IMG/VR virus record: IMGVR_UViG_3300049827_000390
Span: 1-26,714 of that record
From: a virus
Direction: 5' to 3' (one strand)
DNA: 26,714 bases
Shown one piece after another: positions 1 through 23,570 of the stretch; position 1 is the stretch's first letter, and each line of letters opens with the position of its first letter. The position numbers and the translations under genes were made by a program. The notes beneath the pieces were generated by a model, which searched no databases, was not told where the DNA came from, and saw nothing but the letters and a program-made list of their open reading frames with translations.

Positions 1-626
1 AACGTTTCCTTCTCAGAAGGTTCCAGACGAATAGGAGCTACCTTTCTTTCAACCTTGGTCCACTTGGTCGTGGCCTTGACATCCTTCGGCTTCGGATGAG
101 TCAGGAACATGACGTCACGAAGAGCAATGCTCTTATCCTCGTCCTTGTACTTGGCTGCCGAGTAGGCGTTAAGGCGGTTTAAAGCCTCAGCAAGGCCCTT
201 CTTAACCTGGGCAGCTAGTGGGACCTTACCTTCGCTCCAATACAGCTCTAGGAAGGCTGTAATCTCGTCGGCTCTCTGGATCACTTTCGGCAAAGCCTTA
301 CCGGCAACAATCCGGGCCTCTGGCCGACGAAAAAGTTCTCTGATCAAGAACAGCGGAGTGTGACGAAGATTCTGCTTGGTTCTGATCTCGATAGCCAGGT
401 CAGCCACGTCTTCAGGGTTGCACTTGGCAACTAAATCCTTGATTGCCTTCTGGTTGGAATTAGAGCTGACGTAAGCTTGGTTATCCCAAAGTAAAAAAGC
501 GAGAGTGAGTCTGCGGAGTTCTTGCAAGTTGGACTGACGAGCTGCCAGCATACCGGCACCACCAGCAGTACGAATGTCCGTATGCATACGAACATCGGCA
601 CCATCTAAAACCAGATTATCGAACAT
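1..626 (-). CDS. rsr: Ro60/Rsr-like TROVE-domain RNA-binding protein (3' end beyond window)
   Basis: The open frame starts at ATG 626-624 and runs off the left edge after 208 codons without a stop. An AAGGAT Shine-Dalgarno site lies 5 nt upstream. Ro60 proteins form a HEAT-repeat ring that binds misfolded RNAs in its hole and Y RNAs on its outside; in bacteria (Rsr) a Y RNA can tether the ring to nucleases such as PNPase. The visible part fits the TROVE N-terminal half: an AGG segment near residues 21-24, the helix LRRLTLAFLLW (37-47), RHTPLFLIREL (88-98), and VKKGLAEALN followed by YSAAKY (141-160), then LRDVMFLTHPKPKD (169-182), which matches the family pattern of (L)RL(S)HLKP. The C-terminal vWA-like domain would lie outside the window. 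The six Y-RNA-like elements directly upstream on the same strand strongly support the call. Confidence 0.9.
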   Translation of the reverse strand, partial: MFDNLVLDGADVRMHTDIRTAGGAGMLAARQSNLQELRRLTLAFLLWDNQAYVSSNSNQKAIKDLVAKCNPEDVADLAIEIRTKQNLRHTPLFLIRELFRRPEARIVAGKALPKVIQRADEITAFLELYWSEGKVPLAAQVKKGLAEALNRLNAYSAAKYKDEDKSIALRDVMFLTHPKPKDVKATTKWTKVERKVAPIRLEPSEKET

Positions 627-662
627 GTTTAATCCTTGAGAGTTAGAGGAATAAAAATTTTA

Positions 663-731
663 TTAACAGGAACGAACTTTGACAGTTGGTTTTCATTAGC
701 TGTGAAGTAGCTGTCAAATACACCATGTTAA
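663..731 (-). ncRNA. Y RNA-like element Y6 (minimal, no tRNA-like module)
   Basis: Read on the minus strand, the ends TTAACA and TGTTAA pair (6 bp). They are followed by the family-wide TGGTG on the 5' side and TTCC on the 3' side, and by the inner helix TTTGACAG/CTGTCAAA (711-718 with 678-685). The interior holds CTACTTCA and a small hairpin CTTCA-CAGCTAA-TGAA close to that of element Y4, so Y6 looks like a Y4-type RNA without the tRNA-like module. The terminal helix has A-T where other copies have G-C, with both strands changed. It is the copy nearest to the Ro60 gene, about 37 nt upstream of its start. The call as a Y RNA rests on structure and on linkage to rsr. Confidence 0.75.
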
Positions 732-744
732 TTTTTACAGTTAT

Positions 745-877
745 AACGGGAACAAAACAAAAGAGAGCTTAAGAGCAGCTGTCCTAACCACTAGACGACA
801 TCACCTTGCGGTCGATGATAGGAATCGAACCTACGTTCGCAGCTTGGGATTGAAGTAACTCTTTTTACACCACGTTT
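745..877 (-). ncRNA. Y RNA-like element Y5 with Glu-type tRNA-like module
   Basis: The ends AACG/CGTT pair, then come GTGGTG and GTTCCC, then the helix AAAAGAG/CTCTTTT (859-865 with 759-765). The interior is a permuted tRNA. First comes a T-arm (GTAGG, loop TTCGATT, CCTAT), then an acceptor-like stem that folds back through a GCAA tetraloop (799-805 with 810-817, one bulged G), then a D-arm with GTC, TAGTGGTTAG and GAC like that of tRNA-Glu. There is no CCA end: the two acceptor strands are joined by the tetraloop. This is the architecture described for bacterial YrlA RNAs. It lies between a small membrane-protein gene (stop at 883) and element Y6, 13 nt away. Confidence 0.82.
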
Positions 878-882
878 AAAAA

Positions 883-1206
883 TCAGTTATCTTTAGGCTT
901 TCTCGGTCTAACCAATGGAAAATTAAAGTATTTATCAAAAGATTCTTTAATAAAATCTATGTGGGCATCTAATACATTAACCAGGTAGAACAAGATATTT
1001 ATAAAGGGAGTAAGAGAAGTGACCAACATAAGAAATACGACGCCTATTGTGACTCTACCACGATAGTACTTATTATATTTTTCTGCTGCATCTCTTTCTG
1101 CTAAATCTTCTTTAATCATCCCAACCAACTCTTTACCGTCATAGTAAAGATTTGACACGGCAAAGAATAAATAGGACCAAAGGGCAATTTGAATGAGTAA
1201 TTCCAT
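883..1206 (-). CDS. small putative membrane protein within the Y RNA cluster
   Basis: This 107-aa protein is preceded by AAAAGGAT, 4 nt before the ATG, a good Shine-Dalgarno site. The site begins only about 6 nt after the 3' helix of element Y4. Two hydrophobic stretches are visible, about residues 3-20 and 53-78, separated by a charged segment (residues 24-50), and the C-terminus is basic (RPRKPKDN), so a two-pass inner-membrane protein is likely. No family is recognised. The stop codon lies just upstream of element Y5, so the gene sits between two Y RNA-like elements and is probably co-transcribed with them and with rsr. Whether it works with Ro60 or is a passenger cannot be told from sequence. 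Confidence 0.75.
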   Translation of the reverse strand: MELLIQIALWSYLFFAVSNLYYDGKELVGMIKEDLAERDAAEKYNKYYRGRVTIGVVFLMLVTSLTPFINILFYLVNVLDAHIDFIKESFDKYFNFPLVRPRKPKDN

Positions 1207-1220
1207 TTTTATCCTTTTAA

Positions 1221-1350
1221 TAACGGGAACAAATTAAGACAGAAATTTTAGCGCTCTACCAACTGAGCTACAGACCCCGAAGGACCTGGACGGATTCGAA
1301 CCGCCGACCTCTTCATTAGGCGTGAAGTAACTGTCTAAATCACCACGTTA
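1221..1350 (-). ncRNA. Y RNA-like element Y4 with permuted tRNA-like module
   Basis: The terminal helix is TAACG/CGTTA, with TGGTG and GTTCC inside it, and the inner helix is AGACAG/CTGTCT (1331-1336 with 1237-1242). The interior reads: hairpin CTTCA-CGCCTAA-TGAAG resembling an anticodon arm, T-arm GGCGG-TTCGAAT-CCGTC (1289-1305), acceptor strand CAGGTCC, a TTCG tetraloop (1278-1281), acceptor strand GGGTCTG, then TA and a D-arm GCTC-AGTTGGTA-GAGC. All seven acceptor pairs form, two of them G-U. The order 3' half then 5' half, closed by a stable C(UUCG)G loop, means no CCA tail and no free acceptor end. It is therefore a tRNA mimic rather than a tRNA gene in normal order. Confidence 0.85.
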
Positions 1351-1358
1351 AATTTAAA

Positions 1359-1477
1359 GACTAAGCCAAACAAAGACGCCTACGAGAGAACTTATCCTAA
1401 CCGGGATCGAACCGGCATGTTGCCAAACCTGGATAACACGTAGTCGTACGTTCTAGTACGAATTGTTTAGCTTAGTC
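1359..1477 (-). ncRNA. structured RNA with T-arm-like hairpin, unknown family
   Basis: The minus strand can form a 15-bp basal helix between GACTAAGCTAAACAA (1463-1477) and its partner ending at 1359. Inside are a hairpin TCGTAC-TAGAAC-GTACGA, a CTACG/CGTAG helix, a TTATCC/GGATAA stem, and a T-arm-like hairpin (GCCGG, TTCGATC, CCGGT). The RNA overlaps the last codons of the 63-aa gene upstream and ends about 9 nt before element Y4. It lacks the GGTG/TTCC element of the Y RNA copies. It may be a diverged Y RNA, a degenerate tRNA or an unrelated RNA. Confidence 0.5.
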
Positions 1478-1658
1478 TATACTCAAGATAGTTTTCTAAA
1501 TCTAGCAAACTGTCTTTAAATCTTTGAGGAACAAAGTTATAAATTTCTAATTCCCTACGTAATTTTGCAACTTTGTCCGCAATATGTTCTACTTCTTGCT
1601 TCTTGGTTTTTGCCGCTTTTTCAGCTTCATATTCATAAGCATCGCTGTAATGACTCAT
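1467..1658 (-). CDS. 63-aa charged hypothetical protein in the Y RNA cluster
   Basis: The ATG is preceded by AAGGA 8 nt upstream, which supports real translation. The protein is strongly charged (many K/E between residues 10 and 37) and could form a helical or coiled-coil segment; no domain is recognised. It begins about 14 nt after the 3' end of Y RNA-like element Y3, and its last codons overlap the basal helix of the structured RNA at 1359-1477. It thus sits in the same transcript as the Y RNA-like elements. No function is proposed. Confidence 0.6.
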   Translation of the reverse strand: MSHYSDAYEYEAEKAAKTKKQEVEHIADKVAKLRRELEIYNFVPQRFKDSLLDLENYLEYRLS

Positions 1659-1671
1659 ACAGATCCTTATC

Positions 1672-1817
1672 TAAACAGGAACAAACAAAAGAGAGCTTTA
1701 TACCCTTGCGTATACCAATTCCGCCACCCCGCCCCAGTGTGGCAGGGGAAGGTCTCGAACCTCCAGGTGTCTTGCGACGAGGGTTCCCTTGAAGTAACTC
1801 TTTTTTCACCATGTTTA
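1672..1817 (-). ncRNA. Y RNA-like element Y3 with Leu-type tRNA-like module (long variable arm)
   Basis: The terminal helix is TAAACA/TGTTTA, again A-T at the position that is G-C in Y4 and Y5. TGGTG and TTCC flank it, then the inner helix AAAAGAG/CTCTTTT (1798-1804 with 1687-1693). The permuted module has a long variable arm with hairpin GTC-GCAA-GAC, a T-arm (GGAGG, TTCGAGA, CCTTC), an acceptor strand CCCTGCC, a short connecting loop, an acceptor strand GGCGGGG, and a D-arm of tRNA-Leu type (TGGCGGAATTGGTATACGC). The D-arm is followed by AGGGT, which can pair with ACCCT to give an anticodon-stem equivalent. It is a class II tRNA mimic, unlike Y4 and Y5. Confidence 0.82.
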
Positions 1818-1830
1818 AAACTAATTTTTC

Positions 1831-1898
1831 AAAGCGGGAACAATATTTTGAGGGTGGATACTATTTAGACGAAGTAACCCTCAAATTCACCACGCTTA
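1831..1898 (-). ncRNA. Y RNA-like element Y2 (minimal)
   Basis: The terminal helix AAGCG/CGCTT differs from the other copies on both strands. TGGTG and GTTCC are conserved. The inner helix is TTTGAGGG/CCCTCAAA (1878-1885 with 1847-1854), again changed on both strands relative to TTTGACAG. The interior is only about 23 nt and starts with the family motif TTACTTC; no tRNA-like module is present. It lies 13 nt from element Y3 and about 10 nt from Y1, in tandem. Confidence 0.75.
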
Positions 1899-1908
1899 AC
1901 TTTTATTT

Positions 1909-1977
1909 AAACCGGGAACCATACTTTGACAGTGTTTTTCGATTCTATTGAAGTAACTGTCAAATTCACCACGGTTG
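1909..1977 (-). ncRNA. Y RNA-like element Y1 (minimal)
   Basis: The terminal helix is AACCG/CGGTT, with TGGTG and GGTTCC inside it, then the inner helix TTTGACAG/CTGTCAAA (1957-1964 with 1925-1932). The short interior begins TTACTTCA. It is the first copy in the direction of transcription, just after the XRE gene and its possible terminator. There is no tRNA-like module. The helix sequence equals that of Y6 although the loops differ. Confidence 0.75.
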
Positions 1978-1984
1978 AAACCAA

Positions 1985-2033: not shown

Positions 2034-2414
2034 CTAGCCTTGGATCAGCTGAGTCTTGTCGTATTCTGTACCTTCGGCGTCACGAACGTCGAAGACTACT
2101 TTGACCTTGTCCCGGCGAAGGTCTTGCTCTGTTGCATCCAGTTCTTGGAGAAGCTCCACGAATGGCAAGTCCAGAGACCAGCACATGGCGATCATGGCGG
2201 ATAGGTGGCAGGGGTGTCTACCCTGTTCTATCTTGGCCAACCACTCCCTACTTCTGTACACCTGGACAGCCAGTTCTTCTTGTTTCAACCCCTTCTTCTT
2301 GCGGTAGTTGTGGATGATGACACCGAGGATGTCATCGATCGTCGTCCAAGCCACATATTCCCCAACTGGCGGAGGTTTGGGATTGAAAACAGAGAATCCC
2401 TTAAGTTCGGACAT
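2034..2414 (-). CDS. XRE-family helix-turn-helix regulator
   Basis: The ATG has AAGGAG 6 nt upstream, and the phage promoter motif TTGGTATAAG lies about 25 nt farther up. The 126-aa protein carries a Cro/C1-type HTH at about residues 26-90: IIHNYRKKKGLKQEELA forms helices 1-2, and YRSREWLAKIEQGRHP the recognition helix and the conserved IEQG turn. The C-terminal part (95-126) is charged and unrecognised. Such proteins bind DNA as dimers. Its target is not known; the Y RNA/rsr cluster directly downstream is a candidate by position only. It is the first gene of a minus-strand unit that may include the Y RNA-like elements. Confidence 0.85.
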   Translation of the reverse strand: MSELKGFSVFNPKPPPVGEYVAWTTIDDILGVIIHNYRKKKGLKQEELAVQVYRSREWLAKIEQGRHPCHLSAMIAMCWSLDLPFVELLQELDATEQDLRRDKVKVVFDVRDAEGTEYDKTQLIQG

Positions 2415-2475: not shown

Positions 2476-2973
2476 TTAGCTTTTTATTCGAACCACGGTG
2501 GCTTCAATGTCCGGGCCAAGAGCATTGCAAATCTTTGGAGCAATCTCTTCCCATTTCCCCCCACCAAGTCCGGCACCGATAGTAGGGAAATAAACTGGAA
2601 GATGAGTATCTCTGGCTATCATTTTTACCTTGGCGAAGCAGGCTGCGATTGCATCATAATCGACATGCCTCTTATCTCTGCCATATTCAAACTGGGTAAA
2701 GGCATTGATAACGATTACGTTTTCGGGAATATCATTCGTTACCCAAGCTCCATATTTACTAGTCAAATCTACGTTTGGAGCATGAATACAAACTTGGATA
2801 TCCCCTAAGTGCATATTGCGTTCTGTATGAAGAATTTGATATGCTCTGAAAACTTTAGGGAATTTTTGTTTGACTAAAAAAGCTACTCCGGAACCCATTA
2901 CACCTTGACAATTACAGCCATGAACAATGATTCCGCGTTCGATGGCTAAAAGATCACCTACAATTTCTTTCAC
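2476..2973 (-). CDS. macro-domain ADP-ribose-binding protein
   Basis: This 165-aa protein is a whole single macro domain. It shows GDLL (6-9), the nucleotide loop HGCNCQGVMGSGVA (18-31) with the Asn that contacts the distal ribose in the family, and FPTIGAGLGGGKWEEI in the C-terminal third, which forms the diphosphate loop. Macro domains bind or hydrolyse ADP-ribose and its derivatives; phage versions may reverse ADP-ribosylation or act on NAD-derived signals, but which applies here is not visible. The start is GTG, with AGGGGG 5 nt upstream, and it overlaps the TGA of the TnpB-like gene (GTGA), so translation is coupled to that gene. Its C-terminal codons lie next to promoter copy 1. Confidence 0.85.
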   Translation of the reverse strand: MKEIVGDLLAIERGIIVHGCNCQGVMGSGVAFLVKQKFPKVFRAYQILHTERNMHLGDIQVCIHAPNVDLTSKYGAWVTNDIPENVIVINAFTQFEYGRDKRHVDYDAIAACFAKVKMIARDTHLPVYFPTIGAGLGGGKWEEIAPKICNALGPDIEATVVRIKS

Positions 2974-4091
2974 GACATCCCCCTATTTAAAAACATAGGA
3001 TTCCCTTCAAAATCAGGTTTTATTAAATCTAATTTCGGTGGCGATTCATGCCTGAATCGGAGAATATTTTTGGCCGCATTTATATCTCTATTATGTTTTG
3101 TTCCACAATGGTTGCAGGACCATTCTCTTATTTTTAAACCTTTAACGCCCTTTGGAGACGAGCTTGAAATGCAGCCACATTCAGAACATATCTGAGTGCT
3201 ATATTTCTCACTCACTTCTTTATAGACAGACCCTCTAGCTGATGCTTTATATTTGAGGAAGGTCTTTAGCTGAAACCAGCCAGCGTCATAAACAGACTTT
3301 GCCATATTATCTTTAGCAATTATGTCTGTTGAACTTACATTCCCAACTACTATAGTTCCAAACTTAGACACTATTTCGGTACTAAGTTTGTGATTAAAAT
3401 CTTTTCTAGAGTTGGCAATTTTCTTGTGAATATTTTGAACTTGTTTCTTTTTGTTTGCTCTTTGAGCCTTTGCTAATTTATTTTCATATTGTCTAGTATA
3501 TCTGACGGCCTTAACAGTTTTACCTGTGCTTAAAGCAACTATATCTTTAAGTCCTAAATCAATTCCAACAGAATCACTTTTTACTGGACCAAAGATTTCA
3601 GGAACTTCACAGGTTAGATTTAAGTACCAGCGGCCTCGGTTGTCACTAACGACATTGCCAGATTTAATAGTACCTTTAATAGGTCTTGAATTCCAGAACT
3701 TGAATTCTAGTCCAGAAAAACGAGCACTATTACTTTCAAGATTTATAATTAAAGAGTTGGTTTTTAAAGGTATCCAAGGTAAAGATTTTTTACTGCGCCA
3801 CTTTAAAGCTTTTTTCTTAGTTTTTCTACGTCTTGTGTCATATTCAGTACAAATACTTTGGATAGTATTTGCAGGTATCCTAAGTTCTTTACTAGAACCT
3901 GCCGTTAAATTAGATAACTCAAATCCGGTAGGCCCTTCCCAAGGAAGTTTCTCCTTTCGTAGGGCCGCTAGTTGAGTCTCATTGCAGAAGTTCCAGACGA
4001 AATTTACTGCCCTAGCTTTTTCAAAAAGCTCTCTTTTCAGAGACTTTTTAGAGTCTTTGATTCTAAAAGAATAGGTTAAATAATTGGTCAC
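2970..4091 (-). CDS. TnpB-like RuvC protein (IS605 OrfB family), second RuvC motif altered
   Basis: The 373-aa protein has the TnpB layout: a basic N-terminal region, RuvC-I GIDLG (Asp178), an arginine/lysine-rich helical segment (200-235), RuvC-II, a four-Cys zinc finger (C302, C305, C326, C329) and RuvC-III NRDINAA (Asp336). In active TnpB, RuvC-II reads like VVENL with a catalytic Glu; here the aligned stretch is VVGNVSS, with Gly250 at that place and Asn251 after it. The following MAKSVYDAGW-type segment is typical of one TnpB subfamily. No TnpA gene or IS ends were seen, so it looks like a solitary domesticated or stranded copy. The start is GTG with no clear Shine-Dalgarno site. A good sigma-70-like promoter lies just upstream and a macro-domain gene is coupled downstream. 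TnpB proteins are RNA-guided nucleases; activity here is uncertain. Confidence 0.85.
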   Translation of the reverse strand: MTNYLTYSFRIKDSKKSLKRELFEKARAVNFVWNFCNETQLAALRKEKLPWEGPTGFELSNLTAGSSKELRIPANTIQSICTEYDTRRRKTKKKALKWRSKKSLPWIPLKTNSLIINLESNSARFSGLEFKFWNSRPIKGTIKSGNVVSDNRGRWYLNLTCEVPEIFGPVKSDSVGIDLGLKDIVALSTGKTVKAVRYTRQYENKLAKAQRANKKKQVQNIHKKIANSRKDFNHKLSTEIVSKFGTIVVGNVSSTDIIAKDNMAKSVYDAGWFQLKTFLKYKASARGSVYKEVSEKYSTQICSECGCISSSSPKGVKGLKIREWSCNHCGTKHNRDINAAKNILRFRHESPPKLDLIKPDFEGNPMFLNRGMS

Positions 4092-5823: not shown

Positions 5824-5898
5824 TGGAGCGGGTGACAGGAATCGAACCTGCGACCTACAGCTTGGAAGGCTGAGACTCTACCCCTGAGTTACACCCGC
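5824..5898 (-). tRNA. tRNA-Gly (TCC), CCA encoded
   Basis: Acceptor GCGGGTG/CACCCGC, D-arm ACTC-AGGGGTA-GAGT, anticodon loop CTTCCAA (anticodon TCC), variable AGGTC, T-arm GCAGG-TTCGATT-CCTGT, discriminator T and CCA at 5826-5824. All stems pair well. It follows tRNA-Ser by about 6 nt, so both come from one transcript. Confidence 0.95.
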
Positions 5899-5904
5899 GT
5901 TGGC

Positions 5905-5992
5905 TGGCGGAGAAAGTGAGATTCGAACTCACGGACCCTTTCGAGTCGCCGGTTTTCAAGACCGGTTCCTTAAGCCACTCGGACACTTCTCC
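5905..5992 (-). tRNA. tRNA-Ser (TGA), CCA encoded
   Basis: A class II tRNA: acceptor GGAGAAG/CTTTCTCC region, D-arm TCCGAGTGGCTTAAGGA, anticodon stem CCGGT/ACCGG with loop CTTGAAA (anticodon TGA), long variable arm CGACTCGAAAGGGTCC, T-arm GTGAG-TTCGAAT-CTCAC, discriminator G and CCA. The phage promoter motif at 6017-6047 lies about 25 nt upstream. Confidence 0.95.
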
Positions 5993-13647: not shown

Positions 13648-13970
13648 GTGTAACTAATCTAGGAAACTTAGACATTACCAAGAATGGTGGGACTACTAGC
13701 CCAGTAGAACCTGGATCTTTACCCGGTATTCTACCCCTTTTACCGAAAGGGGCCTGGGATCCTGATAAGTTCAAGATTAGGTATCAAAAACTAGACTTAG
13801 ATCAGCCCGGAGATGTAACAGAATTGGAAAGTATTGAAACTAGGGCTATACGGAATAGAGGCGTCTACGTTATATCCAAGAAAGACTTTGTTTTCATGGA
13901 TAGAATCTTCATGCTGATCTGTTACATGGAAGAAGACCAAGAGGCCAAGAAGCCAGAGGCTAAGAAATGA
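13644..13970 (+). CDS. 108-aa hypothetical protein between portal and RNAP beta
   Basis: The GTG start overlaps the portal stop (GTGA), with GGGGAGG about 8 nt upstream, and the stop overlaps the ATG of the beta gene (ATGA). Residues 1-45 are Gly/Pro/Leu-rich and probably extended; the second half reads as alternating strands and helices (RAIRNRGVYVISKKDFVFMD) with a basic tail (EAKKPEAKK). No family is recognised. The double overlap suggests equal expression with portal and polymerase. Confidence 0.75.
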   Translation: MSVTNLGNLDITKNGGTTSPVEPGSLPGILPLLPKGAWDPDKFKIRYQKLDLDQPGDVTELESIETRAIRNRGVYVISKKDFVFMDRIFMLICYMEEDQEAKKPEAKK

Positions 13971-16900
13971 CTGTCGATCCTAAATCCTTAACTCCGATTT
14001 TTTCTTCGCCTGTAAATATCAACAATAAAGTTGATGAAGTCCTCATCAGAGGCTTAGCTACCCAATTCCCAGTAGAGGGGAAAAGATACAGGTTGGAAGC
14101 TCATAATCTCAGGGCTGAAAGAAAGATTTATAGCCATGATGATGAGAAGAAAGCCATTCTTGAAAGTAAAAGCTTAACTTATCCTATTAAGGGAGATCTT
14201 AGACTTATCGATAAAGAAACTGGCAAAATTGTAGATGAAGCTAAGGATTTTTCGCTTATGGATGGATTCCATATGACGAATAAGCACACCTTGCTATATA
14301 AAGGCAATAACTATACTGTAGCTAATCAACTTCAACTACGCCCAGGCGTATATACTCGTATAGACAACGTGGGCGGATTGGAAACTCACTTTAACACGGG
14401 GTCTGGTCGAAGCTTTAAATTGGAATTAGACCCTCAGACTGGACTATTCACCATTACCCCAGACAGTACCAGTGCCAAAACTCCTTTAGCACCCTTGTTA
14501 ACTAAAGTTTTTGGAATTGGCCCTAGAGAAGTTAGTAATTATGTTCCACCTGAAGTTTGGAATGATAACTTAGCAGCTACGGCTGGTAAAGAAGATAGGT
14601 ATATAGCTGCCCTTTACCACAAAATGGTTTCTACCTCCAAGCAAATAGAAAATGCTTCTATGGAGCAGATGGCTGCTCAGCTTAAGGAATCCTTAGCAAA
14701 TTCTGCTCTAAATGAACAGACTACAAAAGCTACTTTAGGTAAATCTTTCTCCGGTGTAAACCATGAAACTTTACTTTTAGCTATGAAGAACTTGGCTGAT
14801 GTTTCTAGCGCCAAGAGAAGTGAGGACAATCGAGACTCTCTCCAGTTCAAGCGTGTTCAGAACTTACCAGACTTCTTAACCACTAGATTTGCTAAAGAAC
14901 ACCAAGTAGTGAAATTGATCAAGGGGAGAATGGCTAGAGAAATTGATCGTTTAGACCAAGAGAGACCAAAGATTCGTGGAAATATGATCCCGAAGCCTTT
15001 CAACAAGTTCATGTCTGGGTATCTTCTAGATTCGAATCTAGTAGCAACACCATCGGAAACTAATCCTCTGGAATCCGTAGAAAACGTAGCCAAGGTAACT
15101 GTATTAGGAGCTGGCGAAGGCGGCATTTCTTCTGACAGAGGGGTACCTATCAGTGCTAGAGACATTGATCCCTCTCATTTGGGTATAATCGATCCTAGCC
15201 GTACCCCGGAATCTGGACATGCCGGTATTGATCAAAGATTTACCATCTCCGCTTTAAGAGATGATGACGGAAACCTATATGCTCGTGTCAAGGATAAATA
15301 TGGAAAAATAAAATCTCTTAGCGTACATGAGATGATGACTTCTACTGTCGGTTTCCCCCATCAAGAAGGTAAAAAGAAAGTTCAAGCTCAAATCAAAGGG
15401 GAACTTGGGGAATGCGATGTCAAAGATGTAGATTATTGGCTCGGTGATACTACGGACATGTATACTATTACAACCAATCTGGTTCCGTTCCTGAATAGTA
15501 ATCATCCCGGTCGGTTAACTATGGCTGGCAAAGCTATTCCTCAAGCTCTTAGCTTAGTTAACAGAGAAGCCCCTCTGGTTCAGACTACGGATGAGTACAT
15601 GACTCCGTTCGTTAGAAAATTAGCCACAGTAGTTAGTACTATAGCCCCTCATGAAGGTGAAGTGACTAAGGCTACTAAGCACGAAGTTGTAATCAAAGAT
15701 CCCAGCGGGATTTTGACTTCGGTAAAAGCTGTGAAAAATTTGCCTTTTAACATGAAGGGTTTTCACGACGATGAGAAACCAGTTGTTTCAGTGGGTAGTA
15801 GAGTTAACTACGGAGATCAACTCTTTGAAAGTAACTACACCAAGGATGGAACTTTAGCTCTAGGTAAAAATTTAAACGTAGCTTACCTACCTTGGAAGGG
15901 TTATAACCACGAAGACGGTCTTGTTATCAGCAAGTCCGCTGCTGATAGCCTGTCTAGTCACCATGCATATAAGATAGACTACGAAATAAACGAAGGTTCA
16001 GTGCCTAAAAAAGCTTTGATTTCTAGATTCTTTCCAGGTAGGTGGACAAAAGAACAACTAGATAACTTAGATGATCGCGGTTTTGCTAAAGTTGGGGCCA
16101 TTTTACACCATGGAGATCCTGTCTATATCGTTTTAGAACATAGAGAACCTAGTCCTCAAGATAAAATGCTGGCCAGACTTCACAAAACTTTAGTTACTCC
16201 GTATCGTCCAGCTACTGAAGTATGGAATCATGATGAAAACGGTGAAGTAGTGGACGCTCATACTTCGTCAAAACAGGTTAGATTCATTATCAGATCGGTA
16301 AAAGGATTAGAAATAGGGGATAAGCTAACTGGGCTTCACGGAAATAAGGGAATTGTGTCCTTGATTCTAGAAGATCATCAAATGCCGTATATAAAAGAGA
16401 CTGGTAAGCATGTAGATTTACTACTAAATCCAGCTTCTGTTACGTCTCGTACAAATTTTGGTCAGCTTATGGAAACAGCTGCGGCTAAAATCGCAGCAAA
16501 AACGGGGAAACCTTACTTAGTTCATAATTTTTCCAAGAACAGTAACATTTCTGAGATAAAAAAAGAACTTGATTCCCACGGAATTTCCGATTCTGAGCAT
16601 ATGGTTGATCCAGGGACTGGTAAAGAATTGGGTAAGATTCTTACCGGACCTCAGTATTTCTTAAAATTGTATAAAACTTCGGATCAGAATTGGTCGGCTA
16701 GAAATACTGGCGGTTATGATGCTAACATGCAACCAAGTAAAGGCGGGGAAGAGGGGTCTAAGAGCGTGGGGTTTATGGAAGCCTTAGGGCTATTAGGCAG
16801 TAATGCCCGTAAGAATTTAAAAGAAATTTCCACGATTAAATCCGAGAGTAATCAAGAGTATTGGGACAAGTTCTTATCAGGACAGCCTCTTCCTAAGCCA

Positions 16901-17380
16901 CAAACTACATTTATAACGAACAAATTCCTAGATTATCTACGGGCCTCTGGTATCAAGACTACTATAAAAGATGGTAAGATAACGGCTGCTCCTTTAACTG
17001 ATAGAGATATTTTACATATGTCGCATGGAAATATCCGAGAGCCTCTAATGTTATCTTCTAAGAACTTAACTCCAGAGAAACACGGACTCTACGATCCTGT
17101 TCTGACCGGCGGTATTAAGGGTACATTTTGGACTCATTATAAGCTAGCCGAGCCAATCCCCTCTCCCCTCTATGAGAAACCTATCAAGTCTATTCTCGGT
17201 CTCTCTACGGCTGAGTTTGAAGGTATATCTCATGGTAAAATCGGCGTAACTAAAGAGGATAAGGATTTATTCCATTTACATGATATTTTGACTGGGAAGA
17301 AACTTAGATCTGTCCAGGTTAATTCATTGAAAGCAAGGCCGGAAATAGAAGAGGTCGTGGAAGTGGAAAAAGACGATTGA
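13967..17380 (+). CDS. rpoB-like: phage multisubunit RNA polymerase beta subunit
   Basis: The 1137-aa protein is an almost full-length beta homologue in one piece. The two active-site barrel parts are clear: YNHEDGLVISKSA (about 645-657) and GDKLTGLHGNKGIVS (about 784-798), the latter carrying the basic residues that contact the transcript, followed by LLNPASVTSRTNFGQLMETAA. The C-terminal SKGGEEGSKSVGFMEALGLLG (about 924-945) matches the GGxxxGxMExxAL element that locks into beta'. It acts with the split beta' encoded downstream. GAGG lies 8 nt before the ATG, which overlaps the preceding stop. Linkage to the portal gene is notable: the enzyme may be made late or be packaged, but that is inference. 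Confidence 0.93.
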   Translation: MTVDPKSLTPIFSSPVNINNKVDEVLIRGLATQFPVEGKRYRLEAHNLRAERKIYSHDDEKKAILESKSLTYPIKGDLRLIDKETGKIVDEAKDFSLMDGFHMTNKHTLLYKGNNYTVANQLQLRPGVYTRIDNVGGLETHFNTGSGRSFKLELDPQTGLFTITPDSTSAKTPLAPLLTKVFGIGPREVSNYVPPEVWNDNLAATAGKEDRYIAALYHKMVSTSKQIENASMEQMAAQLKESLANSALNEQTTKATLGKSFSGVNHETLLLAMKNLADVSSAKRSEDNRDSLQFKRVQNLPDFLTTRFAKEHQVVKLIKGRMAREIDRLDQERPKIRGNMIPKPFNKFMSGYLLDSNLVATPSETNPLESVENVAKVTVLGAGEGGISSDRGVPISARDIDPSHLGIIDPSRTPESGHAGIDQRFTISALRDDDGNLYARVKDKYGKIKSLSVHEMMTSTVGFPHQEGKKKVQAQIKGELGECDVKDVDYWLGDTTDMYTITTNLVPFLNSNHPGRLTMAGKAIPQALSLVNREAPLVQTTDEYMTPFVRKLATVVSTIAPHEGEVTKATKHEVVIKDPSGILTSVKAVKNLPFNMKGFHDDEKPVVSVGSRVNYGDQLFESNYTKDGTLALGKNLNVAYLPWKGYNHEDGLVISKSAADSLSSHHAYKIDYEINEGSVPKKALISRFFPGRWTKEQLDNLDDRGFAKVGAILHHGDPVYIVLEHREPSPQDKMLARLHKTLVTPYRPATEVWNHDENGEVVDAHTSSKQVRFIIRSVKGLEIGDKLTGLHGNKGIVSLILEDHQMPYIKETGKHVDLLLNPASVTSRTNFGQLMETAAAKIAAKTGKPYLVHNFSKNSNISEIKKELDSHGISDSEHMVDPGTGKELGKILTGPQYFLKLYKTSDQNWSARNTGGYDANMQPSKGGEEGSKSVGFMEALGLLGSNARKNLKEISTIKSESNQEYWDKFLSGQPLPKPQTTFITNKFLDYLRASGIKTTIKDGKITAAPLTDRDILHMSHGNIREPLMLSSKNLTPEKHGLYDPVLTGGIKGTFWTHYKLAEPIPSPLYEKPIKSILGLSTAEFEGISHGKIGVTKEDKDLFHLHDILTGKKLRSVQVNSLKARPEIEEVVEVEKDD

Positions 17381-17395
17381 GGTATCTGGCTACTC

Positions 17396-17611
17396 TCAGA
17401 ATAACTCCATCTGTACGGCATTAAAACCTAAGTAGGCTAAAGTATCCTCAGGAGATGCCCCTACATTGTAAAAATTTCTATAAAGTTCTTGCCACCCACT
17501 ATTGGTCAACTTATCGAAACCTCCGATTCCATCTTTAATTCTATGACCCCAAGTTCGACGGTCTAAACTATTGAGAGGATCTGAACTCTCTTCTGAATTA
17601 TAAAAAGCCAT
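17396..17611 (-). CDS. 71-aa hypothetical protein between beta and beta'
   Basis: The ATG has AGGAG about 8 nt upstream; that site lies inside the first codons of the beta' gene on the other strand. The product begins MAFYNSEESSDPLNSLDRRT and continues with a helical segment rich in aromatics (GWQELYRNFYN). No family is recognised. It is the only minus-strand gene within the beta/beta' N module and is divergent from the beta' N gene, with the two ATGs separated by one base. Confidence 0.65.
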   Translation of the reverse strand: MAFYNSEESSDPLNSLDRRTWGHRIKDGIGGFDKLTNSGWQELYRNFYNVGASPEDTLAYLGFNAVQMELF

Positions 17612-17612
17612 A

Positions 17613-18764
17613 ATGAATACTCCTATTTTTATTGAACCGAAGACCGGCGGATCAGCAATCCATGATATGCTGTCTGTTGTTGATATAAAAACTCAAATCG
17701 CAGAGCTTAGTAAGCAAATCCACGAAACAAAATCTGTCTCCAAACGAGACGGCATGGTTAAGCAGTTAAAATATCTGACAAGTCTAGATAAATCAGATAC
17801 CAGACCTGAAGACTCTTACGTTCTTCATCATATCCCCGTTATCCCCCCAATGGCTCGCCCAATCACCCCCAAGGCAGGAAATAGGATTGAGTATGCGGAC
17901 GTGGCTCATCTCTATAAAGACCATATGCTGGTGAATAATAAGCTTATGCCTTTGATCAATAAACTGGATGACTCTTCCTTAATGGCAGAGCGTTCAGCTT
18001 TATATGATGGGGCAAAGGCTATTATGGGTGTAGGAGATGCAATCACGGGTTCCAGCCGTGGTAATCAGCTTAAAGGATTCTTACAGCAAATTGGTGGTGA
18101 GGGTGGGCCTAAGACTGGCTTGTTTCAATCCAAGATTCTAAGCAAGAAGCAAGACTTTTCAGGTCGGGCCACGATTTATGCCGAACCTAACCTTGGTTTT
18201 AATGAGATGGCTGTACCGGAAGAAATGATATGGAAAATGTACGCATTCCATATTATTCGTGACTTAGTTAAAAATGGGTATAGCTATGTAGAAGCTAAAA
18301 AAGCAGTTGAAGATAGGACCCCGTCTGCACAGGCGTCCTTCTCCAAGCTGATAAAGCATATCCCTGTTATTGCCAATCGTGCCCCTACTCTTATGCAGAG
18401 TAACGTCACGGCTCATTTTCCAGTCCCAATCAAAGGTAAAACCTTGGGCATTAATCCCATACATTTAAAAATGTATGCTGGTGACTATGACGGCGATGCT
18501 TTGACAATTCACGTACCTATCACTCCAGAGGCAATTGAAGAAGCCAAAAAGAAACTCTTACCGGATCAACATATTTATGATTTCCGCAGAGGTTTAGGCG
18601 CTTCTTTAGCTGCCCCCGGTCATGAGGCTATATTAGGGTCAATGCATTTAACAGAGCCAGATACCAGTCAGCCCGTTCGAGAATTCAAGAACGAACATGA
18701 TGTTTTAGAAGCTCTGAAAAAGGGCGAGATAGAGGTTAATACTCCTATCCGTCTTACGTCTTAG
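17613..18764 (+). CDS. rpoC-like: RNA polymerase beta' subunit, N-terminal half (split)
   Basis: The 383-aa protein holds the catalytic core of beta'. IPVIPPMARPITP (74-86) matches the VIPPxLRPxxP rudder/lid element; FSGRATI (182-188) matches SGRSVI; NRAPTLMQSNV (255-265) matches NRAPTLHRxgi; and AGDYDGDAL (289-297) is the NADFDGDQM active-site loop whose three Asp residues bind the catalytic magnesium. The N-terminal zinc-binding clamp of bacterial beta' is missing, as in other jumbo-phage polymerases. The chain ends where bacterial beta' would continue; the C-terminal half is a separate gene at 25232. No Shine-Dalgarno site is visible; TATAAA lies about 8 nt before the ATG. Confidence 0.92.
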   Translation: MNTPIFIEPKTGGSAIHDMLSVVDIKTQIAELSKQIHETKSVSKRDGMVKQLKYLTSLDKSDTRPEDSYVLHHIPVIPPMARPITPKAGNRIEYADVAHLYKDHMLVNNKLMPLINKLDDSSLMAERSALYDGAKAIMGVGDAITGSSRGNQLKGFLQQIGGEGGPKTGLFQSKILSKKQDFSGRATIYAEPNLGFNEMAVPEEMIWKMYAFHIIRDLVKNGYSYVEAKKAVEDRTPSAQASFSKLIKHIPVIANRAPTLMQSNVTAHFPVPIKGKTLGINPIHLKMYAGDYDGDALTIHVPITPEAIEEAKKKLLPDQHIYDFRRGLGASLAAPGHEAILGSMHLTEPDTSQPVREFKNEHDVLEALKKGEIEVNTPIRLTS

Positions 18765-18930
18765 GTTTTCTAGGTTTAGGCGTCGTAAGCTTCATTCGAC
18801 AAGCTTGAGTGGCTATTGCCCCCTTAGGCTTCTCGGGTAAAGCCTGCTGAGCTTGAGCTAGTCCACCTAGTTGATATGAACTTTGTAGTAATGTTTTCTG
18901 AAGACTCGACCAAAAGTAGTTAGATGACAT
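18754..18930 (-). CDS. 58-aa hypothetical protein
   Basis: This short open frame begins MSSNYFWSSLQKTLLQSSYQ and ends with a basic tail (MKLTTPKPRKPKT). It overlaps the last 11 nt of the beta' N gene on the other strand. It fills an otherwise empty 220-bp gap and has no stop within a Gln/Ala-rich sequence, but no Shine-Dalgarno site is visible and a terminator lies just upstream, so expression is uncertain. Confidence 0.4.
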   Translation of the reverse strand: MSSNYFWSSLQKTLLQSSYQLGGLAQAQQALPEKPKGAIATQACRMKLTTPKPRKPKT

Positions 18931-18944
18931 ATTTAATTCTAGTT

Positions 18945-18989
18945 TTAAAAAAAGAAAAGAAAACTAAGCGGAACACTGGTTCCGCCTAG
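18945..18989 (-). terminator. Rho-independent terminator of the 113-aa gene
   Basis: On the minus strand GCGGAAC-CAGT-GTTCCGC, extended by CTA/TAG across a mismatch, is followed by TTAGTTTTCTTTTC. It begins a few nt after the stop at 18993. Confidence 0.8.
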
Positions 18990-18992
18990 GGT

Positions 18993-19334
18993 TTAGGTAG
19001 CTTTAATTAAAGCACTTTCGCCGGCTACCCACATACGGCGAAATCCAGTTTCCGGGTTCTGTTTCCCGGTCAAAGTGAAAGCGTTATTGTTCTCGTCTCT
19101 AAGAACATGTTTGTGTTGAATCCTAGTTCTAACTTTGGAAAGTTTAGGGTGTTGGCCAGAGTCCTTAGGATGACTAGCTTTCCACCTAGCCTTCTTCGAG
19201 GTGTGAAGATTCTTCAGGGTGGAACTACGAGTAGATCCTTTTCGCAAAGCCTTGATAAAGTCGTTGCCTTCCTTGCGGCGGACTTTGTAGTCCTCGAAGG
19301 TTTCTTCTGGTTGACGTTCAGGTTGTAGATTCAT
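18993..19334 (-). CDS. 113-aa basic hypothetical protein
   Basis: The protein is highly basic (ALRKGSTRSSTLKNLHTSKKARWKA in shorter runs around residues 29-53) and begins with a proline/glutamate segment (QPERQPEETFEDYKVRRK). It probably binds nucleic acid or another acidic partner, but no domain is recognised. It starts 14 nt after the 99-aa gene without an obvious ribosome-binding site and ends at a strong terminator, so the two genes form one transcription unit from promoter copy 5. Confidence 0.65.
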   Translation of the reverse strand: MNLQPERQPEETFEDYKVRRKEGNDFIKALRKGSTRSSTLKNLHTSKKARWKASHPKDSGQHPKLSKVRTRIQHKHVLRDENNNAFTLTGKQNPETGFRRMWVAGESALIKAT

Positions 19335-19347
19335 TGTTTAAGTTCTT

Positions 19348-19647
19348 TCAAGGCTTGGGAAGAGTTCCGGTACGAGCTGCATAGCAAAGATTGCTCAGAG
19401 CTGCACCTAGCTGCAGACGCTGATTATGGTTAGTGACCACGGTTTCCGCTTGTTTCTTACCATGGATCTTTACATAACGGGCATACAACTGTACCGTCAG
19501 AGTTACGACTTTAACGTTGTTATCCCACATATGCACCGCCCTTACGCCTGCACGGATGGCTTCCTCTGCGTTAACGGCAGTCTTATGGCGAACTGCAAAA
19601 GCAGCATGGGCATACACAGCAGAAATGTTTTTATCAGGGGATGACAT
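19348..19647 (-). CDS. 99-aa hypothetical protein
   Basis: AGGA lies 6 nt before the ATG. The product is alanine-rich and helical (AVYAHAAFAVRHKTAVNAEE), with a likely helical repeat character and a C-terminal AALSNLCYAARTG. No domain is recognised. Its leader contains a perfect tandem 11-bp repeat between the promoter motif and the ribosome-binding site. Confidence 0.7.
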   Translation of the reverse strand: MSSPDKNISAVYAHAAFAVRHKTAVNAEEAIRAGVRAVHMWDNNVKVVTLTVQLYARYVKIHGKKQAETVVTNHNQRLQLGAALSNLCYAARTGTLPKP

Positions 19648-19679
19648 AGTTTTCCTAAAAAGTTAGGACGTAAAAAGAC

Positions 19680-19701
19680 CCAGTTAAGGGCCAGTTAAGG
19701 G
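19680..19701. repeat. tandem 11-bp direct repeat in a leader
   Basis: CCAGTTAAGGG occurs twice in perfect tandem between promoter copy 5 and the 99-aa gene. It could be an operator or a translational control site; position is the only clue. Confidence 0.5.
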
Positions 19702-19714
19702 GTATTACAAGTTT

Positions 19715-19748
19715 CTTATACCAAGAAATTACAAATACTTGAAATTAG
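19715..19748 (-). promoter_or_regulatory. phage promoter motif copy 5
   Basis: The minus strand reads TTTCAAGTA, then TTGTAATTTC, then TTGGTATAAG. The upstream half is less well kept than in copies 2 and 3. It serves the 99-aa and 113-aa genes. Confidence 0.65.
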
Positions 19749-19759
19749 AAACTAGGAAA

Positions 19760-20647
19760 CTAGGAAACCGTGTCTATGTCGCCGTCAGCGTCTCCGTTAA
19801 AAACTGGCATTCTTAAAGCATTCACTGCAAAACCCATCGTTACCACTTGGATGGCTCTGCCTAACCACTTCTCTTTATGATTCCAGGCATCAATTCTATC
19901 TGCTCTGCTAAAACCCGTACCAACACGCCCAACGATTTTTCCAGTAGCATCCTTTAAGACTAAGGCCCCCATAGATGGTTTTATATTTCCATCCTTGTCT
20001 ACCTCCTGGATGATGTCAGAAACTTCTAGGTTATAGGTCAGTTTGTGCTTGATCTTAAATCTAACATTGCCTTCTGATTCGGGCTTGGTTAAGCTAGTGA
20101 TTATAACGCCTTCTTGCCCGCGTTCTTTGGTTCTACGGATGAGATTATCTATTGCCTCATGCCCGGAATAAATTTGCGGAACAAAGATTAAATCTGGTTT
20201 CCCTATTAATTTTTCTACTTTTTTAAGATGTTCTAATTTTTCTTTATAGGTAGGAAATTCTGGATTTATAACGTTATGTAAGGCTACTCTGGCAGGACCA
20301 ATCCTTCCCTGAGTTTCCACAGCCCTCGGTGGAAGAGAGTTTAATATTCCAGAGATTGTGGGATGGGACTCTACTTGAGTTTTATTAAACCCTGAATGGA
20401 ACACCTCCGCATTGAAGACCTGGCCAGCAAGTTCTGGGACTGTAAAGTCTAGATGTGGAAGAGCCGATGTCCTCTCAGGATAGGTACCCTTTACACTTAA
20501 ACGACGAGATATATAGTGAGGTTTTCCTTTAGAATCTATCTGAACGAAAAAGTTTGCCCCATCTATCTTTGCGGTTCCAATCGGGTCCTCTAAGGCCCTC
20601 CAGGTTTTTTTATCAGAAGATTCTAAATATTTAGCTCTTTGGAACAC
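19760..20647 (-). CDS. ATP-dependent DNA (or polynucleotide) ligase
   Basis: The 295-aa protein has the nucleotidyltransferase motifs of ATP-dependent ligases: motif I AKIDGAN with Lys27 as the AMP acceptor, RRLS as the motif Ia/Ib region, FNAEVF (motif III), EGVII (motif IV) and FKIKHK (motif V). A short OB-type domain follows. The enzyme would seal nicks in phage DNA; the N after KxDGx where Arg is usual is mildly atypical. The frame starts with GTG and overlaps the 52-aa gene upstream by 17 nt. It ends a minus-strand operon that also contains a helicase, an HNH endonuclease and a LigD phosphoesterase-like protein, which suggests a DNA repair or end-processing unit. Confidence 0.85.
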   Translation of the reverse strand: MFQRAKYLESSDKKTWRALEDPIGTAKIDGANFFVQIDSKGKPHYISRRLSVKGTYPERTSALPHLDFTVPELAGQVFNAEVFHSGFNKTQVESHPTISGILNSLPPRAVETQGRIGPARVALHNVINPEFPTYKEKLEHLKKVEKLIGKPDLIFVPQIYSGHEAIDNLIRRTKERGQEGVIITSLTKPESEGNVRFKIKHKLTYNLEVSDIIQEVDKDGNIKPSMGALVLKDATGKIVGRVGTGFSRADRIDAWNHKEKWLGRAIQVVTMGFAVNALRMPVFNGDADGDIDTVS

Positions 20648-20789
20648 TTGTCTTCTTCTTTTTATAAACAGTCTTAATCAAAGTCTCTCCCGGCTTAACC
20701 GGTTTATCCTCAGCTACCCAACGCTTCTTACCTTGTTTGTCCTGATATAAACTAAGTTTGACGGCGAGTTTGGTGAGGTAGGGGTTCAC
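20631..20789 (-). CDS. 52-aa small protein with MNxYLxK(I/L)A N-terminus
   Basis: The GTG start overlaps the TGA of the helicase gene (GTGA). It encodes MNPYLTKLAVKLSLYQDKQG and so on, a lysine-rich short protein ending KKKKTSVPKS. Its first nine residues resemble those of the helicase just upstream (MNRYLVKIA) and of the 56-aa protein farther up (MNKYLTKIA). No domain is recognised; the shared leader peptide is its main feature. Confidence 0.65.
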   Translation of the reverse strand: MNPYLTKLAVKLSLYQDKQGKKRWVAEDKPVKPGETLIKTVYKKKKTSVPKS

Positions 20790-22246: not shown

Positions 22247-22413
22247 GACTTCTTCTTCTTAGCCTGTACGACCTTCTTCAACTTAGCATTCCCCAGTTTC
22301 GGAGGCTTGTTAAACTGAGCCCTTAGAGAGTCCATGCTAACCTTCTTGTTTTTTTGCGCCTTTTCTTTCTTAGTTTTTAAAGAGGATGCAATCTTGGTTA
22401 AATACTTGTTCAT
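22243..22413 (-). CDS. 56-aa Lys-rich protein with MNKYLTKIA N-terminus
   Basis: The ATG overlaps the TGA of the HNH gene (ATGA) and its TGA overlaps the helicase GTG. The sequence starts MNKYLTKIASSLKTKKEKAQ and ends in a lysine run (QAKKKKS). Almost a third of the residues are lysine, so nucleic-acid binding or a structural role is plausible. No family is recognised. It shares its first nine residues, with conservative changes, with the helicase and the 52-aa protein. Confidence 0.7.
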   Translation of the reverse strand: MNKYLTKIASSLKTKKEKAQKNKKVSMDSLRAQFNKPPKLGNAKLKKVVQAKKKKS

Positions 22414-23063
22414 TCTATTTCAAACCTATTGTGCTTCGAGATATTTTCCTTAGCAGGAATAACTCTTAAATTATTTTCAACGTGTAATCCACTTACTAAC
22501 TTGCCTTGTAAAGGTATAATATGGTCTACATGGTGTGGTACACCCGTTTCTTCGGTTAATTTGCGTGCTTCTCTATATAGCTGTTTGATTTTTTCTAAAT
22601 TGGCCCAAGACACAGTGCGTTGTTTTTCTCTACATCTTCTTAACGCACGTTCGGCACACGCTAAATCTTTGTGATTTTTTCTATATTTAGCTCTATAACC
22701 TTTGTTAATACGTTCCAATTTAATTGGATCTGATCGAGTTTTTTTAGCTTGCTCTCTTTTTACAAGTCTTTGATTTTCTATATCTGAATGATATTTTTGG
22801 TACGAATATTCTTTAACCTTAGGCTTTATCTTTTCCGCATTTTCTGCATAATATTTTTTACCATATATAACCCCATTAAGGCGTTCTCTATCTATATTTT
22901 TTTCATAATAATTTTTTCTAAATGCCAAGGCACACAAAACACACTTACTATTAGCCGTGTATCTCATTGGAGAAAGATGCCCTTTACGACAATCTGAATC
23001 AGATTGAAATTTTTGTAGTCCAGCTAATTTAGCTGCCTCTCTAAGTTTGGATTTATTTGCCAT
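22410..23063 (-). CDS. HNH endonuclease, possibly homing type
   Basis: The C-terminal part carries HHVDHIIPLQGKLVSGLHVENNLRVIP in two runs, the HNH signature with DH as the catalytic pair and the later Asn and His (NISKHNRF). The N-terminal part has CxxGH and CVLC pairs (about residues 25-43) likely to bind zinc, followed by Tyr/Lys-rich repeats (YGKKYYAEN, YRAKYRKN) typical of phage HNH proteins that bind DNA along a long helix. It is inserted in the operon with overlaps on both sides. Such proteins are often mobile and free-standing homing endonucleases. Confidence 0.85.
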   Translation of the reverse strand: MANKSKLREAAKLAGLQKFQSDSDCRKGHLSPMRYTANSKCVLCALAFRKNYYEKNIDRERLNGVIYGKKYYAENAEKIKPKVKEYSYQKYHSDIENQRLVKREQAKKTRSDPIKLERINKGYRAKYRKNHKDLACAERALRRCREKQRTVSWANLEKIKQLYREARKLTEETGVPHHVDHIIPLQGKLVSGLHVENNLRVIPAKENISKHNRFEIE

Positions 23064-23502: not shown

Positions 23503-23503
23503 G

Positions 23504-23524
23504 GGTGAACTGCGGATTTTAGCT
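23504..23524 (-). promoter_or_regulatory. AGCTAAAATCC element before the PE gene
   Basis: The minus strand reads TTTTAGCTAAAATCCG 13 nt before the ATG. The 11-mer AGCTAAAATCC is identical to that before the portal gene on the plus strand (11799-11809). It can be read as a -10 box (TAAAAT) for a short-leader transcript. Confidence 0.5.
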
Positions 23525-23553: not shown

Positions 23554-23570
23554 CTATTTTAGCATTAAGG

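What the first reader, a model, noticed from the sequence alone, without database searches (positions are those of the whole stretch)
1..1977. Phage-borne Ro60 with a cluster of six Y RNA-like genes
A TROVE-domain (Ro60/Rsr) gene is preceded on the same strand by six elements that share paired ends, a conserved GGTG...TTCC bulged region and an inner helix. This is the layout of bacterial Ro60-Yrl loci, but six copies interleaved with two small protein genes in a phage genome is unusual. Seen directly: the repeats, the helices and the TROVE residues. Known: bacterial Rsr works with Y RNAs, and Y RNAs have been reported in some phages. Inference: the phage brings its own RNA surveillance or RNA-remodelling particle, perhaps to redirect host nucleases or to handle tRNA fragments.
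Basis: partly seen in the sequence, partly recalled or inferred. Interest (0 to 1): 0.95.

Follow-up and report, generated by a model that had tools for sequence, protein, structure and literature searches.

The report
Phage Ro60 with six Y RNAs
A fragment of a large phage genome carries a gene for Ro60, a ring-shaped RNA-binding protein, together with six small Y RNAs that Ro60 should bind, three of which imitate transfer RNA; such clusters turn out to be common beside Ro60 genes in phages and bacteria, so this is a rich member of a known kind rather than a new kind.

Summary
The partial ORF at 3-626(-) is the N-terminal part of a Ro60/Rsr (TROVE) protein. The six Y RNA-like elements at 660-1979 are real. 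Covariance models built without any window sequence find exactly these six (E 2e-8 to 4e-26), all on the rsr strand; the only other matches are weak fragments inside tRNA genes. Three are bare Ro60-binding hairpins. Three also carry a circularly permuted tRNA: acceptor stem closed by a small loop, cloverleaf opened at the anticodon end, grafted on the Ro60-binding stem. A seventh structured element (about 1355-1481) is not a Y RNA.

The layout is less unusual than claimed. A motif scan of viral contigs that ignored rsr still led to TROVE neighbours. Caulobacter phage CcrColossus has eight Y RNAs, several phages have four or five, and alphaproteobacterial rsr loci commonly have four or five. 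Phage Ro60 is known (a Thermus phage structure is in the PDB), and Y RNAs have been reported in mycobacteriophages.

One less expected result: many Y RNAs, in phages and bacteria, keep an exact tRNA anticodon arm that the Rfam YrlA model lacks. Their anticodons do not match the body of the mimic, so a decoy set tailored to particular tRNAs is not supported. Function is inferred.

The parts
3..626 (-). rsr/Ro60 gene, N-terminal 208 aa (TROVE HEAT-repeat part); C-terminal vWA part lies beyond the record end
   Evidence: PHROG 850, PDB TROVE E 2e-8, leave-one-out HMM E 8e-55, AlphaFold/Foldseek best matches all Ro60/TROVE; Pfam silent on the fragment
660..733 (-). Y1: short Y RNA, bare Ro60-binding hairpin
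   Evidence: R1 54.3 bits E 8e-13; R2 E 2.5e-9
740..880 (-). Y2: Y RNA with permuted tRNA-like module (Glu-like D-arm by eye), closed by an anticodon-stem-like helix
   Evidence: R2 76.9 bits E 1e-17; T-arm, capped acceptor and D-arm parsed
1217..1353 (-). Y3: Y RNA with permuted cloverleaf: anticodon-like arm (5 bp, 7-nt loop), 5-nt variable loop, T-arm, 7-bp acceptor with 4-nt cap, D-arm
   Evidence: R2 110.6 bits E 4e-26; Rfam YrlA 39.1 bits, below its cut-off; parse; fold
1355..1481 (-). Y4: structured element with long terminal stem and a T-arm-like hairpin but no Ro60 motif; not a Y RNA; role unknown
   Evidence: folding z -3.5; 19-nt inverted repeat; no R1/R2 match
1669..1819 (-). Y5: Y RNA with permuted class II tRNA-like module (variable arm), body nearest tRNA-Leu
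   Evidence: R2 54.4 bits E 4e-12; nearest reference tRNAs are Leu
1828..1900 (-). Y6: short Y RNA
   Evidence: R1 54.8 bits E 6e-13; R2 E 2e-8
1906..1979 (-). Y7: short Y RNA
   Evidence: R1 56.2 bits E 2.5e-13; R2 E 2e-9
883..1206 (-). 107-aa ORF between Y2 and Y3, probably membrane protein by eye
   Evidence: ORF; AAGGA site by eye; no relative in phages
1467..1658 (-). 63-aa ORF between Y4 and Y5
   Evidence: ORF; AAGGA site by eye; no relative in phages
2034..2414 (-). HTH regulator upstream of the array on the same strand; link to the array not shown
   Evidence: Pfam HTH_31 E 1.4e-9
2476..2973 (-). Macro-domain phosphatase upstream on the same strand; a link to RNA repair is possible but not shown
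   Evidence: Pfam Macro E 1.2e-7; PHROG 335 phosphatase E 5.8e-40

Best explanation
The locus encodes a phage Ro60 (Rsr) and its own set of six Y RNAs. Shown by homology and covariation: the protein is a TROVE protein, and all six RNAs carry the family's Ro60-binding stem on the rsr strand. Inferred from bacterial Ro60 biology: the Y RNAs compete for the outer surface of one Ro60 ring and so make alternative particles. The three bare hairpins would stabilise Ro60 and gate its RNA-binding cavity. The three tRNA-mimicking RNAs would act as tethers that bring enzymes recognising the tRNA elbow or acceptor, or a host exoribonuclease such as PNPase, to Ro60. The particles would then help degrade or remodel structured RNA in the infected cell. 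My estimates: about 0.95 for Ro60 plus Y RNAs, about 0.45 for the tether/gate function.
For: Protein identity. Six independent model hits. A motif scan of viral contigs that ignored rsr gave loci where 50 of 73 with paired Y structure had a TROVE gene in the fetched stretch. Chosen without any pairing criterion, 54 motif hits near TROVE have the outer helix 88% paired in the single register with a 1-nt bulge, against 47% (maximum 54% in 300) with dealt-out partners; 54 motif hits not near TROVE give 58%. The custom scan found 430 Y RNAs near TROVE on its strand against 6 elsewhere in TROVE loci; all 380 R2 matches in TROVE loci lie on the TROVE strand (some are partial tRNA matches). Covariation score 0.745 against 0.20 shuffled (that set was chosen for pairing). 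PMC7790460 states that in D. radiodurans Y RNA tethers Rsr to PNPase for structured RNA decay.
Against: No expression or binding data. The vWA half of the protein is missing from the record. Two complete relatives of this phage, Salmonella phage Arash and Vibrio phage D69, have no match to the Ro60 fragment, so the locus is accessory in this phage group. No search for a phage PNPase was made. Only one phage sequence of this locus was found: a search with the neighbouring HTH protein found no close relative.
Confidence: 0.6

Rival explanations
1. The tRNA-mimicking Y RNAs are decoys. Parked on Ro60, they occupy host enzymes that attack tRNA, such as anticodon nucleases of anti-phage defence, and so protect phage and host tRNA. 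They would be poor substrates because the acceptor end is sealed and the anticodon loop is altered or absent.
For: Three different permuted tRNA bodies in this locus. Many phage and bacterial Y RNAs keep an exact anticodon arm: 15/66 viral and 17/75 cellular fully paired at the 5-nt variable-loop spacing against 0-5 at other spacings, U33 in 36/40 viral arms. PMC7790460 proposes that the YrlA tRNA-like domain might competitively inhibit an anticodon nuclease and reports that it is not cleaved.
Against: The isotype read from the anticodon does not agree with that of the body: 5/64 against 3.2 expected, P 0.22, although the method assigns 122/150 real tRNAs. In the window only Y3 has an anticodon-like arm, and it lacks U33. 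Three of six Y RNAs have no tRNA mimic. Bacterial rsr loci have the same design without a phage context.
Confidence: 0.18
2. The locus is imported cargo copied from a bacterial rsr locus and gives the phage little or no benefit.
For: Absent from two complete related phages. Bacterial loci have the same layout.
Against: Ro60 with Y RNAs recurs in crAss-like, Xanthomonas, Caulobacter, Brevundimonas, Rhizobium and Mycobacterium phages and many IMG/VR contigs. Helices are kept by compensating changes, which argues for selection.
Confidence: 0.12
3. The phage Y RNAs act mainly on the host's own Ro60/PNPase, displacing host Y RNAs and redirecting it.
For: The Ro60-binding stem is shared between phage and bacterial Y RNAs.
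Against: The phage brings its own Ro60 beside the RNAs. The host is unknown and may have no rsr; a review puts Ro60 homologues in about 5% of sequenced bacteria (PMC4726728).
Confidence: 0.07
4. The elements are degenerate tRNA genes or chance repeats unrelated to Ro60.
For: Three contain T-arms and D-arms, and related ones are annotated as tRNA-Thr or tRNA-Gln in phage records.
Against: Three have no tRNA part and match R1 at E about 1e-12. The arms are permuted relative to tRNA, and ARAGORN finds no tRNA here. Strand and neighbourhood association with TROVE is very strong.
Confidence: 0.02

Closest known systems
Rsr-YrlA/YrlB locus of Salmonella and related bacteria (Rfam RF02553 YrlA)
   Same: Ro60 homologue with Y RNAs on the same strand; tRNA-mimicking module with T-arm first, capped acceptor, then D-arm
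   Different: No rtcBA seen in the 4 kb upstream; rsr is cut off downstream. Only one of six RNAs rings with the YrlA model and it stays below the cut-off. Y3 has an anticodon-like arm absent from the YrlA consensus. Half of the RNAs have no module.
Deinococcus radiodurans Rsr, Y RNA and PNPase particle
   Same: Ro60 bound by a Y RNA that can tether it to a nuclease (PMC7790460)
   Different: Nuclease partner unknown here; several Y RNAs instead of one main one
Ro60 of Thermus phage phiLo (PDB 9l5y)
   Same: Phage-encoded TROVE protein; among the best sequence and fold matches of the window protein
   Different: Distant; no Y RNA of this model within about 3 kb of the phiLo gene
Caulobacter phage CcrColossus TROVE locus (L005)
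   Same: TROVE gene preceded on the same strand by an array of Y RNAs, short and tRNA-mimicking mixed
   Different: Eight Y RNAs, at least one annotated as tRNA-Gln; unrelated phage group
Xanthomonas phages Olaya and 10KY502B TROVE loci
   Same: Four to five Y RNAs upstream of a TROVE gene annotated as hypothetical; one Y RNA is 75-77% identical to window Y3
   Different: Small phages of about 43 kb; no protein genes annotated within the array in the stretches seen

Membership tests
Ro60/Rsr (TROVE) proteins | TROVE-domain homology and fold | tested here: met
   Direct Pfam scan of the 208-aa fragment is silent, while the 10 aligned relatives all match PF05731
Ro60/Rsr (TROVE) proteins | C-terminal vWA domain with metal site | not testable with these tools
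   gene runs off the record; full-length relatives have it
Ro60/Rsr (TROVE) proteins | binds Y RNA and single-stranded or misfolded RNA | not testable with these tools
   needs binding experiments
Bacterial Y RNAs (broad sense) | Ro60-binding stem: outer helix, 1-nt bulge, GG/CC, internal loop, inner helix | tested here: met
   all six; R1/R2, unbiased pairing test on relatives
Bacterial Y RNAs (broad sense) | gene linked to a Ro60 gene on the same strand | tested here: met
   window layout
Bacterial Y RNAs (broad sense) | transcribed as a stable RNA and bound by Ro60 | not testable with these tools
   no transcript data for this phage
Rfam RF02553 YrlA | gathering score of 69 bits | tested here: not met
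   only Y3 rings, 39.1 bits; not filed as a YrlA member
Rfam RF02553 YrlA | permuted tRNA-like module: T-arm, capped acceptor, D-arm | tested here: met
   in Y2, Y3 and Y5; absent in Y1, Y6 and Y7
tRNA genes | cloverleaf in normal order | tested here: not met
   ARAGORN finds no tRNA in 640-2000; arm order is permuted

The most novel reading that the evidence does not exclude
Phage and bacterial Y RNAs form a broad class of sealed, circularly permuted tRNAs, many with an intact anticodon arm, presented on Ro60 rings as a mixed set in one locus. In phages the set serves to sequester or recruit tRNA-directed enzymes during infection, for example as a Ro60-borne decoy array against tRNA-cleaving defence. 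The structural half is supported here; the counter-defence half is not tested, and its version tailored to particular tRNAs is not supported.
Probability: 0.15. Interest if true: 0.8.

Novelty: new member of a known kind. Interest (0 to 1): 0.52.

Why it matters
What bacterial Y RNAs do is still largely open. Phage clusters offer compact natural sets of bare and tRNA-mimicking Y RNAs bound to one Ro60, which can be deleted one by one in a laboratory phage. The results also give covariance models that find Y RNAs missed by the Rfam YrlA model and mislabelled as tRNAs in public phage records, and they show that many Y RNAs retain a genuine anticodon arm, a feature missing from the YrlA consensus.

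Tried and rejected
1) Decoys tailored to particular tRNAs: a first test gave 10/64 agreement between anticodon and body, but the reference tRNAs included Y RNAs miscalled as tRNA; after removing them it was 5/64 against 3.2 expected, P 0.22. Dropped. 2) Recent tandem duplication of tRNA-like modules: module identity within a locus (median 0.60) equals that between loci (0.60), so not supported. 3) Support from the transcribed candidate RNAs beside an Rsr-like gene in Listeria phage CKA15 (PMC12282133): in the related phage P100 the gene of matching size (gp165) is DUF2828/DUF7788, not TROVE, and R2 finds no convincing full-length Y RNA there (one full-length match at E 0.09). 4) The locus in close relatives: the portal protein leads only to 5-6 kb fragments, the HTH protein to none, and phages Arash and D69 have no match to the Ro60 fragment. 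5) Promoters and terminators in the array: close to chance level. 6) Key reviews and the 2014 survey of bacterial Y RNAs were not held, so how far multi-Y clusters and anticodon arms are already described could not be checked.
Full report
What was checked. The window is a whole IMG/VR record of 26,714 bases, a linear fragment. It is phage DNA: a portal protein (PHROG portal; 91% and 72% identical to two other viral contigs) and a multisubunit RNA polymerase whose beta part is 50-53% identical to those of Salmonella phage Arash and Vibrio phages of about 187 kb.

The protein. The ORF at 3-626(-) gives 208 residues and runs off the record. PHROG 850 rings at 1.7e-9, TROVE chains in the PDB at 2e-8, and phage TROVE proteins align at up to about 49% identity, E down to 8e-47. 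An HMM built from 12 phage TROVE-family proteins without the window gives E 8e-55 at Z=1e6. An AlphaFold model (mean pLDDT 77.6) has only Ro60/TROVE structures as its eight best PDB matches, including Ro60 of Thermus phage phiLo.

The RNAs. Read on the minus strand, six elements share an outer helix, a 1-nt bulge, GG/CC pairs, a GGTG...TTCC internal loop and an inner helix; each has at least four outer pairs after the bulge, seen directly in the sequence. Model R1, from 46 short Y RNAs of other loci, finds Y1, Y6 and Y7 at E about 1e-12 and nothing else in the window. Model R2, from 48 tRNA-mimicking Y RNAs of other loci, finds all six at E 4e-26 to 2e-8; the three weaker matches are partial and lie in the tRNA genes. 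Rfam YrlA rings only on Y3, below its cut-off.

Two kinds of Y RNA. Y1, Y6 and Y7 are bare hairpins of about 74 nt. Y2, Y3 and Y5 (137-151 nt) carry a circularly permuted tRNA: T-arm, acceptor stem closed by a loop of 4-7 nt, D-arm. Y3 also has a 5-bp, 7-nt anticodon-like arm and a 5-nt variable loop, though without U33. Y5 has a variable arm like a class II tRNA and its nearest reference tRNAs are Leu. The element between Y3 and Y5 (Y4, 1355-1481) folds well (z -3.5) but has no Ro60 motif and no model match.

Is it real structure, and tied to Ro60? Two motif scans of IMG/VR that ignored rsr and pairing gave loci of which 73 had a paired Y structure; 50 of these had a TROVE gene in the stretch fetched. 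Among 54 motif hits near TROVE, chosen without any pairing criterion, the outer helix is 88% paired in the one register with a 1-nt bulge, against 47% (maximum 54%) when partners are dealt out among loci; motif hits not near TROVE give 58%. The covariation score of 46 short Y RNAs is 0.745 against 0.20 shuffled (this set was chosen for pairing). In TROVE loci, 430 Y RNAs lie near the gene on its strand and 6 elsewhere; 358 of the 430 are upstream.

How unusual is six? In 80 viral TROVE loci the custom scan found 0-5 Y RNAs, in 80 loci from bacterial and archaeal assemblies 0-5, with 4 the commonest in the latter. R2 raises some counts: CcrColossus 8, Rhizobium phage RHph_Y65 5, viral contig L260 5. 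Several alphaproteobacterial loci have 5. The window, with 6, is near the top but part of a continuum. Within a locus the tRNA-like modules are as different from each other as modules of different loci (median identity 0.60 in both), so the clusters did not grow by recent duplication of those modules.

Anticodon arms. At exactly the 5-nt variable-loop spacing of tRNA, 15 of 66 viral and 17 of 75 cellular modules have a fully paired 5-bp, 7-nt arm, against 0-5 at other spacings (4 and 5 at the neighbouring 4-nt spacing, which is also tRNA-like). The loop reads C32 U33 ... A37 A38, with U33 in 36 of 40 viral cases. So many Y RNAs keep a real tRNA anticodon arm, which the Rfam YrlA consensus does not have. 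The isotype read from the anticodon does not agree with the body: 5/64 against 3.2 expected, P 0.22, with the method recovering 122 of 150 real tRNAs. This does not favour a decoy set matched to particular tRNAs.

A possible origin. R2 weakly matches (E 0.001) the junction of the adjacent tRNA-Ser and tRNA-Gly genes at 5875-5932 and similar tRNA junctions in other phages (model positions 49-105 only). The 3' half of one tRNA followed by the 5' half of the next has the same arm order as the permuted module. This is a lead only.

Mechanism. Shown: a Ro60 gene and six Ro60-type RNAs on one strand. Inferred from bacterial systems: bare Y RNAs gate or stabilise Ro60, tRNA-mimicking ones tether partners. 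PMC7790460 states that Y RNA tethers Rsr to PNPase in D. radiodurans and suggests that the YrlA tRNA-like domain may inhibit an anticodon nuclease. I rate tether/gate most likely for function, decoy second.

What is known. Phage TROVE genes are annotated in crAss-like and other phages, jumbo-phage surveys mention TROVE proteins (PMC7824862), a phage Ro60 structure was released in 2025, and Y RNAs in mycobacteriophages are cited from Chen et al. 2014 (via PMC12282133). That survey itself was not readable here, so the novelty of the anticodon arms and of multi-Y clusters is uncertain. I therefore call this a new member of a known kind.

Noticed in passing
1355-1481 (-): Seventh structured element with a long terminal stem and a T-arm-like hairpin but no Ro60 motif; folding z -3.5; no match to R1, R2 or Rfam.
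   Followed up: partly
5875-5932 (-): The junction of adjacent tRNA-Ser and tRNA-Gly genes weakly matches the permuted tRNA-like part of the Y RNA model, suggesting how such modules could arise from tandem tRNA genes.
   Followed up: partly
L005 3119-3186, L011 4032-4110, L013 3759-3826: Y RNAs beside TROVE genes are annotated as tRNA-Gln or tRNA-Thr in public phage records; the anticodon arm inside the permuted module misleads tRNA finders.
   Followed up: yes
2970-4091 (-): TnpB/IS605 OrfB-like gene (Cas12f1-like TNB domain) overlapping the start of the macro-domain gene; a guide RNA was not looked for.
   Followed up: no
13967-26713 (+): RNA polymerase genes are split: the beta-prime parts (17613-18764 and 25232-26713) are separated by several kilobases of minus-strand genes; in phage Arash the polymerase lies in two ORFs.
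   Followed up: no
23053-23502 (-) and 19760-20647 (-): Proteins that look by eye like a LigD-type 3'-phosphoesterase and an ATP-dependent DNA ligase; not tested.
   Followed up: no
L371 9571-11091 (-): Listeria phage P100 gp165 (PHROG 850) is DUF2828/DUF7788 rather than TROVE; PMC12282133 reports a protein of the same size, CKA15_055, likened to Rsr, in purified virions of the related phage CKA15.
   Followed up: partly
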